The translations under genes were made by a program, and so were the position numbers. The notes under the pieces are model-generated. The model did no database searches. It saw only the letters and a list, made by a program, of their open reading frames with translations, and was not told where the DNA came from. A DNA stretch of 64,000 nucleotides, taken from Trichothermofontia sichuanensis B231. GTDB lineage: Bacteria; Cyanobacteriota; Cyanobacteriia; B231. This document shows positions 18,939-25,027 of this stretch, in pieces; the stretch's first letter is position 1, and each line of letters begins with the position of its first letter. The stretch is from the NCBI RefSeq assembly GCF_026240635.1, contig NZ_CP110848.1:4049741-4113740 (forward strand), in the 5' to 3' direction.

Positions 18939-19673
18939 ATGCTCTCCACCATTGACTTATCCTACTGGCTCAAAACTACGCCGCTCTTTTGCGGGTTAAG
19001 CCCAGCACAACTGAGAGCGATCGCCGCAATTGCACAACTACAGACGTTCCCAAAGGGCGACCATATCTTTCATCAGGGCAGCGCGGCCACTGGCTTTTTT
19101 GTGGTAAAAATAGGTCGGATCAAGATTTTTAAGTTATCAACCCAAGGCAAGGAGCAAATACTTCACTTTTGCGGTCCGGGGGATCATTTCGCCGAAGTTC
19201 CCGCCTTGGATGGTCAGGATTTTCCAGCATCGGCAGCCACACTTGAACCATCGGAGGTAATTTTTTTGCCCCGGATTGCGTTTATTGAGTTGCTCCATCA
19301 GTATCCTGATATCGCGATCACCATGCTCATTAGTCTGTCTCAACATGCACGTCGTCTAAGTCAGTTGGTTGAAGATCTCTCATTTAAAGAAGTACCCCAA
19401 CGTCTGGCAACCTATTTGTTGAATCTGAGCGATCGCACGCTAGCGGCTGCACCTAATCACGCCCACACGCCCAATGTCATCGAGTTAGATTTGAGTAAAA
19501 GTCAACTGGCTGCTGTTCTAGGCACGATCCCAGCCACCCTCTCCAGGGCTTTTGATCGGCTCAGCCGTGAAGGCATGATTGTTATTGATGGAACACGCAT
19601 TGAGTTACGCGATCGCGATCGCCTGCAAGAGTTAAGTCAATCACTGGAGAGGCGTAATAGCTCTTCGGCCTAG
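18939..19673 (+). CDS. Crp/Fnr-family regulator, probable NO/redox sensor (DNR-like)
   Basis: A 244-residue transcription factor: N-terminal cyclic-nucleotide-type barrel (residues ~10-130, GDHIFHQGSAATGFFVV), long dimerisation helix and a C-terminal winged helix (LDLSKSQLAAVLGTIPATLSRAFDRLSREGMI). The N-terminal 4Fe-4S cysteine cluster of FNR is absent (the isolated Cys residues are at FCGLS and FCGPG), so a haem-type or other sensor as in DNR is more likely. It converges on the norB-ric-copD-ywiC operon, whose promoter carries TTGACTTAAGTCAA, a site fitting this family. The link is inferred. Confidence 0.85.
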   Translation: MLSTIDLSYWLKTTPLFCGLSPAQLRAIAAIAQLQTFPKGDHIFHQGSAATGFFVVKIGRIKIFKLSTQGKEQILHFCGPGDHFAEVPALDGQDFPASAATLEPSEVIFLPRIAFIELLHQYPDIAITMLISLSQHARRLSQLVEDLSFKEVPQRLATYLLNLSDRTLAAAPNHAHTPNVIELDLSKSQLAAVLGTIPATLSRAFDRLSREGMIVIDGTRIELRDRDRLQELSQSLERRNSSSA

Positions 19674-19794: not shown

Positions 19795-20649
19795 CTATGC
19801 CGCAGTGACAGGGTGATTGGGTAATAAAGAAATTGCAGTCAACAGGAAGAATACCATTGCTGAGAGGGTTTCCAGTATGGCTACCTGGTGAATGGCTGTT
19901 GTTTTGTACCACTCTAATTGCCAGAGGATCAACCCAAACTTAATCAGGGCAATACCAAAAGCGATCGCTGCCAACGTTGTCAGCCCGCCACCATACCACA
20001 ACCCGCAGACAATCAGCGTTGCAACGCTATGATAAACTAGCCCCGGCATCAGTGCTTGCGTCTTGGGTTTGCGCAGTTTAACCGTAAAAATAGCACTGCT
20101 AAAAAACAAGGTATTCAAAAGCCATAGGCCCCAAAAGGCAAAGGTGATCGTTTTCGTGGTGGCGATCGCGGCAAAGGGGGCTGCCAGGCAAACAGCGGCA
20201 AAGGTTAGGAGTTCATTGCCAATGGATCTCTGCTGTCGATAGAAGACTGAGATGGCATCGATGAGCAAAGCAGCGATCGCGCCTAGGTAAAGCCATATCA
20301 GGACTGGCACTTGGAGGTACAAATAAAGGGCAAGGCCCAGGGCGAGTCCCCCGTAAAGACTACCCCACAAAAGCAATCGGGGTTTCCAAGTCCGTCGCTG
20401 TTTGATTTGCAGCACCAGCGGATGTTCGGCTTGAAACCCAGCCAAGGCACAAATGCCTGCCAAAGTGGTGGCTAGTGTCCACTGTTGAGCCGCCGCTGCG
20501 CCGCTCAGAAACGACACTAACAGGACGATATAAACACCATGTTCCGGCGAAACCGTTGGGTGATACCAGGCGGGGGCACGGTAAGCACGACGGTCTGAAG
20601 GGAGCACATCCCCATTTTGCACAGGTGGGTTTGCATCAGAAAGTGCCAT
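19795..20649 (-). CDS. YwiC-like membrane protein
   Basis: A 284-residue protein with about eight hydrophobic segments and the PTVSPEHGVYIVLLVSFLSG start of the YwiC-like family. In Bacillus subtilis ywiC lies next to fnr and the nar nitrate-respiration genes; the biochemical role is unknown. Here it is the last gene of the NO-reductase operon (norB-ric-copD-ywiC), which strengthens the association with nitrogen-oxide respiration or detoxification. It is separated from copD by 81 bases. Confidence 0.75.
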   Translation of the reverse strand: MALSDANPPVQNGDVLPSDRRAYRAPAWYHPTVSPEHGVYIVLLVSFLSGAAAAQQWTLATTLAGICALAGFQAEHPLVLQIKQRRTWKPRLLLWGSLYGGLALGLALYLYLQVPVLIWLYLGAIAALLIDAISVFYRQQRSIGNELLTFAAVCLAAPFAAIATTKTITFAFWGLWLLNTLFFSSAIFTVKLRKPKTQALMPGLVYHSVATLIVCGLWYGGGLTTLAAIAFGIALIKFGLILWQLEWYKTTAIHQVAILETLSAMVFFLLTAISLLPNHPVTAA

Positions 20650-20730: not shown

Positions 20731-21177
20731 TTAGCTGAGTCCACCCAAGCGAATTCCCGCGCCGATTATGACAAACCCAACAGCCAGAATGGTGACGCCC
20801 ACAATGTGCCAAGCGAGGCTGTTGAGAGTCTCTTTGGTAAGATTAGGGATGATAAAAAAACGGGCGTGAATGGCTAATGCCAGGGTAGCCAGCAACAACA
20901 ATAGCTTGAGGCCAATATAGGTAGATAGGTAGGAGTCAAAGGCCCAGAAGTTTTCTAGTCTGGGAAAGTAAATCCAGGTGAGCCACAACCCCGTCAAGAC
21001 CTGAAGTAGGAGTGCCAACAAGCCCAACCCCTCGAAGTGGGATTCAAATTGATGGATGCGATCGGGATCGCGGTGTTGCCATGCCTGGGGGAGTACGGTG
21101 ACGGCCAGCACCAGATGGCCACCTGTCCAGATGGTGGTACCAAGGGTATGCAGAACTACCAGAATTTTGAATAGCAT
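20731..21177 (-). CDS. CopD-like membrane protein
   Basis: A 148-residue integral membrane protein with four hydrophobic helices and histidines in helix 1 (VLHTLGTTIWTGGHL) and later segments, a pattern of the CopD/cytochrome b-like family, which may bind haem or copper. Its ATG overlaps the ric stop by one base (TGATG), so the two are translationally coupled. Proteins of this kind occur in some NO-reductase operons. The exact function is unknown. Confidence 0.7.
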   Translation of the reverse strand: MLFKILVVLHTLGTTIWTGGHLVLAVTVLPQAWQHRDPDRIHQFESHFEGLGLLALLLQVLTGLWLTWIYFPRLENFWAFDSYLSTYIGLKLLLLLATLALAIHARFFIIPNLTKETLNSLAWHIVGVTILAVGFVIIGAGIRLGGLS

Positions 21178-21896
21178 CAGCCTTGTCCCTTAGTTTGCTC
21201 TAGCGCGATCGCTTGGGGAAATAGCAAATTATTTTCCTTGTGAACGTGTTGGTGCATATCCTGTTCAAAGGTGTGTAGGGCATCAAGCATGGCTCGATAG
21301 GTATTGCAGGCCCAGTCTGGTGGGGTGAAATGATCACTCAGTTGGCGCAGTTGGGCGAGGGCAACACCCGCTGCCTCATGTTCAAGTTCCATCTGCTGAA
21401 TGGGATTAGCTAATGTCCCACCGTGAAATATGGGTACAGAGTCGCTAGCGTCTAATCGTCGAATCATCGGGAATAAAATCTGTTCTTCCTTCATCAAGTG
21501 GGTGGTGAGTTCGGCTGATAGGGCTAGAAAAATCTCCTGAATTTGACGCAAACGGGGTTCTTTCTCGCCGTGAACGGTCGCTACCTTGGTGACCAGTTTT
21601 TCTAAACGGGGTAATTCACGATGCAAGTAGGCATGGTGAATTTGCTCAATGTGATTAGCCAGCTCCGTTAAGGACAGGTCGCCAAGATTGCTTTCTGGCG
21701 CGGGTGTGGCTGCACTATAGGCTTCTAACTCAGCCAGAAAACTCTGGGGATCGATGCCGCGCTGGGCACAAACTTCTGCCAGGGTCTTTTGGCCGCCACA
21801 ACAATAATCGACCTGGGCTTGCTCAAATAAGTGGGCGAGAGAGGGGTGATCACGAACAATTGCGCCGACAGTATCGTTGATTTGCACAGTAGCCAT
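21177..21896 (-). CDS. ric: Iron-sulfur cluster repair di-iron protein (RIC/ScdA/YtfE)
   Basis: RIC repairs Fe-S clusters damaged by NO or oxidants. The protein (239 residues from the ATG at 21896, with AGGAG upstream) has the N-terminal ScdA domain with the Cys-Cys pair in DYCCGGQ and a hemerythrin-like domain with the di-iron ligands (His residues in HIEQIHHAYLHRELPRL, HLMKEEQILFP and HVHKENNLLFP). A longer start 21 codons upstream is not supported. It is downstream of norB and coupled to copD, which fits a nitrosative-stress operon. Confidence 0.93.
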   Translation of the reverse strand: MATVQINDTVGAIVRDHPSLAHLFEQAQVDYCCGGQKTLAEVCAQRGIDPQSFLAELEAYSAATPAPESNLGDLSLTELANHIEQIHHAYLHRELPRLEKLVTKVATVHGEKEPRLRQIQEIFLALSAELTTHLMKEEQILFPMIRRLDASDSVPIFHGGTLANPIQQMELEHEAAGVALAQLRQLSDHFTPPDWACNTYRAMLDALHTFEQDMHQHVHKENNLLFPQAIALEQTKGQG

Positions 21897-22212: not shown

Positions 22213-24522
22213 TCAGGGGGTAGTGGTTTTAACTGCGAGAAATTCGGATGGTTGTGCCTGGGTTGGTTGCTGAAAAATACCGACGAGCGATCGTCCAACG
22301 CAATACACCAGCATCATGGCTCCGACGGAAAAGACGATATCGCCGGGAATCCGCAGCCACACGGTCCACTGCATCCAGGGAGAACTAATCACCTCGGCGC
22401 TGCGGGCGTACCAGGTGCCGTAGTTGACTGATTGCACTAATTGATAGAAGCCATTAGGAATCAAACCCGTGACCATCATCAGCACCAAGCCACCGTTAAG
22501 CCACCAGAACGCAAAGTTCAGGTTCCTTTCATCCCAGGCCCGATCCGGGGTGATTTCTCTCAGGGCAAAGAGCATGAGCGCGATCGCGAGCGAACCGTAG
22601 ACGCCGTACAGTGCCGAGTGAGCATGAATGGGCGTGGTGTTTAATCCCTGGGAGTAGTAGAGGACGATCGGCGGATTGATCAGGAAGCCAAACACACCCG
22701 CACCCACCAGATTCCAGAAGCAGGTGGCAATAAAGAACTTGAGTGGCATCCGATAAAATCCCTGCGCCTCCTGGGACAGTTTGAGGGATTTGACAACTTC
22801 AAAACCAATCAATGTCAGGGGAACGACCTCCAGCGCTGAGGCCACCGACCCCATTGCGGTGATAAACACAGGTGTGCCCGCAAAATACAGGTGATGCAGC
22901 GTGCCAATGACCCCGCTACCCAGGTAGAGAATAGTGGTCAGATAGGTAGCGCGTAGGGCAGAGGAGCGCTTGAGAAAACCCAGTTCGCTACAGAGGTAGG
23001 CGATCGCCACGGTGGCAAACACCTCAAAGAACCCTTCCACCCACAGATGCACCACCCACCAACGCCAGTACTCTGCTACGCTCAGCGGCGTATGGTTGGT
23101 GTACATCAATCCTGAGGCATAGAACAGGGGAATCGTGATCGCGCTGTAGAGGAAGAAGTGATTTAGCCCGGTTTTGCTGCCTTCCGCCTTGAGCGCAGGC
23201 TTGAGGGCACGGAACATCAGCCAGAGCCAAAACACCATGCCGCCAATCAGCAACAGTTGCCAGAGGCGACCCAGTTCCACATACTCATAGCCCTGGTGCC
23301 CAAACCAAAAGCTGTGGTTGCCTAACCAGCCCTGCACACCAGCCCAGGCACCGACTAGCGAACCCACGACCACCACGGTCAAGGCGACCAATAAGCCACC
23401 ATTCCCCCAAGCTTGCCCCTTGGGTTCGTGCTGACCAAAGCGTGGGCCAAAGTACAGACCTGCTGCTAACCAACAGGTGGCAATCCAAAAGACCGCCAAT
23501 TGCAAATGCCAGGTGCGGGAAGCCGCATAGGGCAGGTAGCTCTGAATCGGGACGCCATAGAAGCCATCGCCTTCTACGGCATAGTGGGCCGTGACCATGC
23601 CCATGAGGATCTGTACCAAAAACAAGGTCATGGCCACGCCAAAAAAGAGGGTCGTCACCTTTTGGCTGGGCGTCGCCAGACGGATGGCCGGACGGGCAGC
23701 GACGCTCTGGATATCTTCGGCGTCTTCCTGGGTGAGATAGACGAACAGGAAAAAGGCGATCGCGGCAATCAGCACAATCACTGACACGATCGACCAGATC
23801 AGGAACTGCGCCGGCGCTTGATTGCCAATCAGGTCATCGTGGGGCCAATTGGCGGTATAGGAAAAGGGCGCATTGGGTCGGTTAGCGGCAGCAGCCCAGG
23901 CAGTCCAGCTAAAAAATGCCGTGACATCGCGGATTTGTCCGGGGTCGGTAAACCAGCCACTGGGGATAGAATGCACCGCTGAACCTTGGGACAGCAAGGT
24001 TTGATAGTCCGCAAAGACCTGGCGTAACCCCTGGGTTTGGGCAGCAGTCAGGGTCAGCCTGCCGGTGTCCGGGTCATAGCGATTGGTCTTAAATTCGTCC
24101 CGCAGTTTTACCTGCAACAGGGCGCGATCGCTGGCCGACAAGGCTTCCCAATCCGTCTGATCAAAGTCCGCCTTGCCGTTGTACAACACCCCCGCCGTTG
24201 CCAAACCCCAGCGATGTAAAACATCAGCCGTCCAATCGGGAGCGAGGTAGCTACCATGCCCCCAAATACTGCCAATGTGTTGCCCCCCCCGTGCTAGATA
24301 GATTTTCTGACCCGATTGAATCGTCTCCTGGGTTAAAATGACCTCCTGACGGGGTGAGACGATCGTTACAGGAATCGGGGGTGCATTTTTATAAATTGCG
24401 GCTCCCGCCGAAAGCAAGACTGTAAAAGTGATAACGCAGATCAAAACTAGCCAAGTCGGTAAGCTTAACTGCCTACCTGGCTTACGGATTGGCACAGCAA
24501 TATCAAAAGTTGGATTTGCCAT
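22213..24522 (-). CDS. norB: Quinol-dependent nitric oxide reductase (qNOR)
   Basis: NorB of the single-subunit type reduces 2 NO to N2O using quinol. The 769-residue protein has an N-terminal helix and ~200-residue periplasmic extension (SIWGHGSYLAPDWTADVLHRWG), then about 12 helices with the haem and FeB ligands: MVTAHYAVEG, WWVVHLWVEGFFE, GTLHHLYFAG and HAHSALYGVYG. Length is usual for qNOR. It is the first gene of the run norB-ric-copD-ywiC and is preceded by a Crp/Fnr-type operator and a ~275-base leader that holds a dispersed repeat. In a cyanobacterium the role is NO detoxification. Confidence 0.97.
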   Translation of the reverse strand: MANPTFDIAVPIRKPGRQLSLPTWLVLICVITFTVLLSAGAAIYKNAPPIPVTIVSPRQEVILTQETIQSGQKIYLARGGQHIGSIWGHGSYLAPDWTADVLHRWGLATAGVLYNGKADFDQTDWEALSASDRALLQVKLRDEFKTNRYDPDTGRLTLTAAQTQGLRQVFADYQTLLSQGSAVHSIPSGWFTDPGQIRDVTAFFSWTAWAAAANRPNAPFSYTANWPHDDLIGNQAPAQFLIWSIVSVIVLIAAIAFFLFVYLTQEDAEDIQSVAARPAIRLATPSQKVTTLFFGVAMTLFLVQILMGMVTAHYAVEGDGFYGVPIQSYLPYAASRTWHLQLAVFWIATCWLAAGLYFGPRFGQHEPKGQAWGNGGLLVALTVVVVGSLVGAWAGVQGWLGNHSFWFGHQGYEYVELGRLWQLLLIGGMVFWLWLMFRALKPALKAEGSKTGLNHFFLYSAITIPLFYASGLMYTNHTPLSVAEYWRWWVVHLWVEGFFEVFATVAIAYLCSELGFLKRSSALRATYLTTILYLGSGVIGTLHHLYFAGTPVFITAMGSVASALEVVPLTLIGFEVVKSLKLSQEAQGFYRMPLKFFIATCFWNLVGAGVFGFLINPPIVLYYSQGLNTTPIHAHSALYGVYGSLAIALMLFALREITPDRAWDERNLNFAFWWLNGGLVLMMVTGLIPNGFYQLVQSVNYGTWYARSAEVISSPWMQWTVWLRIPGDIVFSVGAMMLVYCVGRSLVGIFQQPTQAQPSEFLAVKTTTP

Positions 24523-24631
24523 AATGATTCATTACAAGATCTAGTCATCCAAGCACAGAACCTGAACTAGCAACAACTGGGAAAGAGATTACCCCTTGCT
24601 CAGGTTATCCAGTTCAAGGTTGTGATCCTGA

Positions 24632-24778
24632 TTGATTGACAAAACTCGAACTGCCCTCGCCCCAATCCCTCTCCCAGAACAGGCGAGGTGCTCATCGAAC
24701 CAGGGCTTTGGGTTAAAGTCCCTTCGCCCCTTCTGGAAGAAGGGATTTAGGAATGAGGGGACAAGATTTGTCTGTCAA
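24632..24778. repeat. Family C dispersed repeat, copy 2, in the norB leader
   Basis: A 147-bp repeat whose ends TTGATTGACAAAACTC and GATTTGTCTGTCAA are imperfect inverted repeats. It shares its internal order of segments with the copies at 5425 and 45965. It lies between the predicted norB promoter (24803-24846) and the norB start, so it would be transcribed as part of the leader. Confidence 0.6.
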
Positions 24779-24802
24779 CGAGGGTTGTGATCCCTGTGAT
24801 TC

Positions 24803-24846
24803 AGCATAGGCTTGATCTTGCCAAGGATGCTTTGACTTAAGTCAAA
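24803..24846 (-). promoter_or_regulatory. norB promoter with Crp/Fnr-type operator
   Basis: A perfect 16-bp palindrome TTTGACTTAAGTCAAA (24831-24846) matches the TTGAC-N4-GTCAA form of Crp/Fnr-type sites. On the minus strand it is followed 22 bases later by TATGCT (24803-24808), a good -10 element. If this hexamer is at -12 to -7, the palindrome is centred near -42, the classic class II activator position. No -35 is needed or seen. The neighbouring DNR-like regulator is the obvious candidate. Everything beyond the sequence match is inference. Confidence 0.65.
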
Positions 24847-24982
24847 ACCAGCCTTAAAAAAGTTTGAAGATTACCACAGAATCGGTTCATCAGTCTGTCT
24901 CCGGGCGTGTGTCATCCGGAGCAGCTGGTCAAAGATCTCTCATCGGAGAAAGTCGCGCACTAGTTCTCAAAACGAGGCTCTT

Positions 24983-25027
24983 CTGAGTTTATGGTGGGGG
25001 CGCTACGCGCCCCCACCATAAACTCAG
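24983..25027. repeat. 45-bp perfect palindrome downstream of ctaE
   Basis: Two 21-base arms, CTGAGTTTATGGTGGGGGCG plus C and its exact complement, are separated by the 3-base loop TAC. The hairpin has no mismatch and no U-run. It lies about 70 bases beyond the ctaE stop codon, so it could end or stabilise the cta transcript, or be a dispersed palindrome or insertion scar. The rest of the 577-base gap 24523-25099 holds the family C repeat and the norB promoter. Confidence 0.6.

What the first reader, a model, noticed from the sequence alone, without database searches (positions are those of the whole stretch)
24803..24846. Perfect Crp/Fnr-type palindrome at class II position for norB
TTTGACTTAAGTCAAA on the minus strand is followed by 22 bases and TATGCT. 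If TATGCT is the -10, the palindrome centre is near -42. A site this well placed, with a candidate regulator 5 kb away that lacks FNR cysteines, predicts NO activation through a DNR-type protein.
Basis: partly seen in the sequence, partly recalled or inferred. Interest (0 to 1): 0.6.

Follow-up and report, generated by a model that had tools for sequence, protein, structure and literature searches.

The report
Conserved nitric-oxide gene switch in cyanobacteria
A short mirror-image DNA word in front of a cyanobacterial nitric-oxide-removing enzyme gene is a real, strongly conserved docking site for a regulator of a kind first predicted in 2005 (HcpR), so the find is sound but mostly a new example of a known switch, with one new puzzle in how two sister regulators share the same word.

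Summary
In detail: TTTGACTTAAGTCAAA lies at 24831-24846, 22 nt before TATGCT, upstream of norB. It is the only copy of that 16-mer within two mismatches in the 4.44-Mb genome. The exact 14-mer core TTGACTTAAGTCAA, spacer included, precedes norB in many other cyanobacteria. It also precedes hcp or the globin gene glbN where the neighbouring Crp/Fnr regulator is an ortholog of 18939-19673. In 55 of 57 such sites a TAnnnT -10 box starts exactly 22 or 23 nt after the 14-mer (background about 5%), so a class II activator geometry is conserved. The window regulator lies 5 kb away, but in relatives it is divergent from norB across the site. In four other genomes where it is also distant, the site still sits at norB or hcp. 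The protein fits the HcpR1 group better than DNR (TTGAC, not TTGAT, half-sites); Rodionov et al. 2005 already predicted this for Synechocystis norB. New here: every regulator paired with norB/glbN has Ala or Ser where DNR and the hcp-paired ones have the recognition-helix Glu, yet the operator is the same. A further element at about -73 to -56 marks norB promoters but not hcp promoters. NO sensing and activation remain untested.

The parts
24831..24846 (-). Operator TTTGACTTAAGTCAAA (core 14-mer 24832-24845), predicted centre about -42 relative to the norB start
24803..24808 (-). -10 box TATGCT, first base 23 nt after the 14-mer; no TTGACA-like -35 at 16-18 bp
   Evidence: TAnnnT at offset 22 or 23 in 55 of 57 homologous sites
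24796..24796 (-). Predicted transcription start of norB (inferred, not mapped)
   Evidence: spacing from the -10
24852..24869 (-). Conserved upstream element CTTCAAA-CTTT-TTTAAGG (period-11 repeat of TTAAG-like words), about -73 to -56
   Evidence: column information; present in 22 of 27 norB, 4 of 10 glbN, 0 of 19 hcp sites
22213..24522 (-). norB, quinol-type single-subunit nitric oxide reductase (769 aa)
   Evidence: PF22085 and PF00115
21177..21959 (-). RIC/YtfE/ScdA di-iron repair protein (likely start the internal ATG near 21896)
   Evidence: TIGR03652 above cut-off
20731..21177 (-). CopD-domain membrane protein, kept beside RIC in relatives
19795..20649 (-). YwiC-like membrane protein, kept in the cluster in relatives
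18939..19673 (+). Crp/Fnr-family regulator, HcpR1-like, recognition helix GTIPATLSR; divergent from norB in relatives, at the far end of the cluster here
24618..24793 (.). Dispersed repeat (at least 40 copies in the genome) inserted in the norB leader just downstream of the predicted start, flanked by the 11-bp direct repeat GGATCACAACC; empty site in L008, L009, L010

Best explanation
The palindrome is the operator of a class II, activator-dependent norB promoter. The dimeric Crp/Fnr regulator of 18939-19673, of the HcpR1 kind, binds TTGACTTAAGTCAA centred near -42, next to RNA polymerase at a promoter with a -10 but no -35 box. It switches on norB, and probably the RIC, CopD-like and YwiC genes behind it, when nitrosative stress (most likely NO bound to heme in the sensor domain) puts it in its DNA-binding form. 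Shown by comparison here: the site, its strict spacing to the -10, and its linkage to this regulator and to NO genes. Inferred: direct binding, activation rather than repression, NO as signal, heme as sensor, and co-transcription of the downstream genes.
For: Uniqueness in window and genome. Exact 14-mer upstream of norB in about 14 diverse cyanobacteria, while norB loci without it lack the regulator. Of 57 sites tied to norB, glbN or hcp, 55 have TAnnnT at offset 22 or 23 (44 representatives with flanks under 60% identical: 42), against 2 of 52 for unlinked sites. Where the regulator lies away from the site (G438, G496, G529, G388) the exact site with its -10 is still found at norB (Ala class) or hcp (Glu class). 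Targets are NO reductase, hybrid cluster protein, globin and RIC only. DNR is the best PDB sequence match; DNR and HcpR are among the fold matches. Independent 2005 prediction of the same pairing for Synechocystis slr0449-norB with TTGACnnnnGTCAA (PMC1274295).
Against: No expression, footprint or binding data. The regulator is not adjacent in this genome, and a truncated second copy of the same kind exists at C1:360173-360694, as do unrelated Crp-family paralogs. The recognition-helix Glu thought to read this half-site is Ala here. A repeat of about 154 bp sits in the leader and could affect expression.
Confidence: 0.85

Rival explanations
1. The same regulator binds the site but acts mainly as a repressor that leaves under NO, or as both activator and repressor, since the operator also overlaps the polymerase footprint.
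For: The site abuts the core promoter. PMC1274295 reports that predicted HcpR targets in Desulfovibrio (aprAB, sat) go down when hcp goes up under nitrite.
Against: No usable -35 lies 16-18 bp upstream of the -10, so the promoter should be weak without an activator. The fixed 22-23 nt spacing at norB, glbN and hcp is the class II activator signature.
Confidence: 0.08
2. Another protein uses the site: the truncated second HcpR copy, or one of the other Crp-family proteins in the genome.
For: The truncated copy has the same GTIPATLSR helix.
Against: The copy lacks its N-terminal part and sits among unrelated genes. The other full-length paralogs have quite different helices, such as RETVTR and RVTVTR. 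Across the phylum it is orthologs of 18939-19673 that accompany the site.
Confidence: 0.05
3. Chance palindrome or an unrelated structural element such as a hairpin.
For: TTGACnnnnGTCAA as a class is at chance frequency in the genome (7 against 6 control).
Against: Exact 14-mer at orthologous promoters across the phylum with fixed -10 spacing.
Confidence: 0.01

Closest known systems
HcpR1 (Rodionov et al. 2005, PMC1274295): slr0449-norB in Synechocystis and Avar17201-hcp in Anabaena variabilis
   Same: Crp/Fnr regulator without FNR cysteines, TTGACnnnnGTCAA site, divergent from norB or hcp in most relatives, no other sites in the genome
   Different: Here the regulator is not divergent from norB but lies 5 kb away at the far end of the cluster; the 2005 text does not describe the invariant TTAA spacer, the fixed -10 spacing, the upstream element, glbN as a cyanobacterial target, or the Ala/Glu split
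DNR of Pseudomonas aeruginosa
   Same: Best PDB sequence match (31% identity in the fold match); NO-responsive Crp/Fnr activator of nor genes
   Different: DNR motif is TTGATnnnnATCAA and it has PETFSR; here TTGAC half-sites and PATLSR
HcpR2, e.g. Porphyromonas gingivalis HcpR
   Same: Nitrosative-stress Crp-family regulator; fold match 9day (20% identity)
   Different: Usual motif GTAACnnnnGTTAC, Pro/Ser/Gln at the position of CRP Glu181, heme ligand Met68; about 20% identity
FNR
   Same: Similar half-site family and fold
   Different: No conserved cysteines, so no Fe-S cluster expected

Membership tests
HcpR1 | Crp/Fnr two-domain architecture | tested here: met
   PF00027 and PF13545; CRP/DNR/HcpR fold matches to a model of pLDDT 82, pTM 0.53
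HcpR1 | No FNR-type cysteine cluster | tested here: met
   two cysteines only, neither conserved in 64 orthologs
HcpR1 | Operator TTGACnnnnGTCAA before hcp or norB | tested here: met
HcpR1 | Falls in the HcpR1 branch of a Crp/Fnr tree | not tested
HcpR1 | Binds heme and responds to NO | not testable with these tools
   His136 is conserved (94% and 89%) and is a candidate ligand only
DNR | Operator TTGATnnnnATCAA | tested here: not met
   TTGAC/GTCAA in 24 of 27 norB sites exactly; a TTGAT half-site in only one of the rest
DNR | Recognition-helix Glu (CRP Glu181) | tested here: not met
   Ala199 in the window protein; Ala or Ser in 36 of 36 orthologs of its class
Class II Crp/Fnr-dependent promoter | Activator site centred near -41.5, fixed to the -10, weak -35 | tested here: met
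   55 of 57 sites, offset 22 or 23 nt; start not mapped

The most novel reading that the evidence does not exclude
Two sister HcpR1 lineages in cyanobacteria keep the same 14-bp operator although the norB/glbN lineage has replaced the recognition-helix Glu, thought to set half-site specificity, by Ala or Ser. Target choice would then come not from the operator but from a composite promoter: the extra element at -73 to -56, found at norB and some glbN but not hcp promoters, contacted by RNA polymerase alpha or by an unknown partner. One genome (G454) carries both regulators with identical operators at norB and hcp, which makes the question testable.
Probability: 0.3. Interest if true: 0.6.

Novelty: new member of a known kind. 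Interest (0 to 1): 0.42.

Why it matters
It extends a 2005 two-genome prediction to a phylum-wide, spacing-resolved promoter model for nitric oxide defence in oxygenic phototrophs and adds a globin gene as a target. The shared operator with a changed contact residue is an exception to the published residue-base correlation for this family, and it can be tested with two proteins and two promoters.

Tried and rejected
Chance origin: rejected. A wider NO regulon in this genome: the other six TTGACnnnnGTCAA sites are at chance number and mostly inside or beside unrelated genes; glbN was not found and hcp is only a remnant of about 44 codons. FNR-like oxygen sensing by Fe-S: no conserved cysteines. 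Strict DNR: operator and helix differ. Autoregulation in this genome: no good site before 18939. Some exact 14-mers elsewhere in the phylum (L087, L088, L091, L093, L098, L100, L101) are at unrelated genes, mostly inside them, lack the -10, and were set aside. Synechocystis salina (L019) has neither the site nor the regulator beside norB. The paper on norB of Synechocystis (Busch 2002) is not held. A structure model was made but its domain arrangement is uncertain (pTM 0.53).

Full report
What is there. The minus strand reads TTTGACTTAAGTCAAA (24846-24831), 22 bases, TATGCT (24808-24803), then 280 bases to the norB ATG at 24522. The 16-mer has no other match with up to 3 mismatches in the window. 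In the 4.44-Mb genome there is no other match within 2 mismatches; the 3-mismatch matches equal the control. The looser motif TTGACnnnnGTCAA occurs 7 times against 6 for the reversed control, so the loose motif alone is weak evidence and the exact word must be judged by comparison.

Neighbours. norB is a quinol-type NO reductase; behind it lie RIC/YtfE, a CopD-domain protein and a YwiC-like protein, and then, convergent, the Crp/Fnr regulator. The best PDB sequence match of the regulator is DNR.

Comparison. Of the norB loci found in genome contigs, about 14 cyanobacteria carry TTGACTTAAGTCAA, or a near copy, upstream of norB, exact down to the TTAA spacer in nearly all, at 72 to 390 bases from the ATG. 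In these loci an ortholog of the window regulator (56-83% identity) is divergent from norB across the site, with three exceptions: two short contigs (L010, L018), and L051, which has a two-mismatch site and no regulator within 8 kb. norB loci without the site lack the regulator. A scan of 390 genomes of the class with the regulator itself gave 61 genomes. Reading the DNA around most of those matches, and around extra site-bearing loci, showed the site next to norB, next to glbN (truncated globin), or next to hcp.

Promoter geometry. Sites were chosen by palindrome and neighbouring gene, not by any -10. Of 57, 55 have TAnnnT starting 22 or 23 nt after the 14-mer. The background for two adjacent offsets is 4.7%; 52 unlinked site orientations gave 2; of 44 representatives with flanks under 60% identical, 42 have it. 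This fixes the operator at about -42, the class II position, in three different target genes. The binomial probability printed ignores relatedness and should not be quoted; the representative count is the fair figure.

Regulator away from its site. In the window the regulator lies 5 kb off. Among 13 regulator-bearing genomes with no good site or no target beside the regulator, four (G438, G496, G529, G388) have an exact site with correct -10 elsewhere, at norB, ywiC-norB, hcp and hcp. The G496 site has the same sequence as locus L038, so it overlaps with the 57. The class of regulator matched the target in all four.

Two classes. Regulators beside norB or glbN read P/S-A-T-L/I-S-R (one PSTLSR); those beside hcp read PETLSR: 36 against 28 proteins, without exception where a target is seen. 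With that column left out, the tree still puts each class on one side of a branch, but support is low (SH-aLRT 67 and 38), so single origin is likely, not shown. The operator is the same in both classes (24 of 27 norB sites, 8 of 10 glbN, 12 of 19 hcp exact). Rodionov et al. (PMC1274295) correlate the Glu at this position (CRP Glu181) with a base of the half-site; the Ala class is an exception. That position 199 corresponds to CRP 181 rests on the alignment to DNR and family knowledge. In G454, a metagenome-assembled genome, both classes occur with identical operators at norB and hcp (L148, L170); assembly mixing cannot be excluded.

Upstream element. In norB promoters a period-11 repeat of TTAAG-like words ends 6 nt before the 14-mer (24852-24869 here, about -73 to -56). 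By a simple score it is present in 22 of 27 norB, 4 of 10 glbN and 0 of 19 hcp sites, against 1-3% in shuffled sequence. The pattern was noticed in these same sequences, so the score is descriptive. It lies where RNA polymerase alpha docks at class II promoters, or it could bind a second regulator; neither is shown.

Leader insertion. A dispersed repeat with at least 40 copies in the genome sits between 24629 and 24782, flanked by the 11-bp direct repeat GGATCACAACC, and is absent at the matching point in L008, L009 and L010. It begins just downstream of the predicted start, so the promoter is intact but the leader is long.

Sensor. No cysteine is conserved; His136, just before the long dimer helix, is conserved in both classes and is a candidate heme ligand. 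The model has pLDDT 82 but pTM 0.53; CRP, DNR and P. gingivalis HcpR are among its fold matches. Heme and NO sensing are inference from DNR and HcpR (PMC12750200).

Literature. The pairing of this kind of regulator with norB and TTGACnnnnGTCAA in Synechocystis, and with hcp in Anabaena, was predicted in 2005 as HcpR, not DNR. Later work calls slr0449 'dnr' and reports AbrB2 effects on it and on norB (PMC5318462, PMC4264147). No test of binding or NO response of the cyanobacterial protein was found in the library searched, which holds open-licence papers only.

Verdict. The family label should be HcpR1-like, and the genome-wide regulon is a single promoter. Interest comes mainly from the operator/residue mismatch and the composite promoter.

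Noticed in passing
window 24618-24793: Dispersed repeat of about 154 bp with an 11-bp direct repeat at its ends, inserted in the norB leader; at least 40 copies in the genome.
   Followed up: partly
G000 C1:360173-360694 (L141:8162-8650): Second, N-terminally truncated copy of the same regulator class (57% identical), among unrelated genes.
   Followed up: partly
G000 C1:733805-733933 (L200): Short remnant (about 44 codons) of hcp; no intact hcp or glbN found in this genome.
   Followed up: partly
L008:10347-10715, L009, L012, L014, L020 and others: glbN (truncated globin) sits between norB and RIC in relatives but is missing from the 253-bp norB-RIC gap of the window.
   Followed up: partly
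L217 (G529): Extra site TTGACCTAAGTCAA with a -10 at 22 nt directly upstream of a RIC-CopD pair, suggesting RIC as a further direct target.
   Followed up: no
L052, L054, L059, L065, L072 upstream of norB: Pseudoxanthomonas/Luteimonas norB genes have TTGACCTGCGTCAT-like sites and a distant Crp/Fnr gene nearby (27-30% identity to the window regulator).
   Followed up: no
window 24983-25027: Long near-perfect inverted repeat after the cox operon (ctgagtttatggtgggggcgc...gcgcccccaccataaactcag), probably a terminator separating coxBAC from the norB promoter.
   Followed up: no
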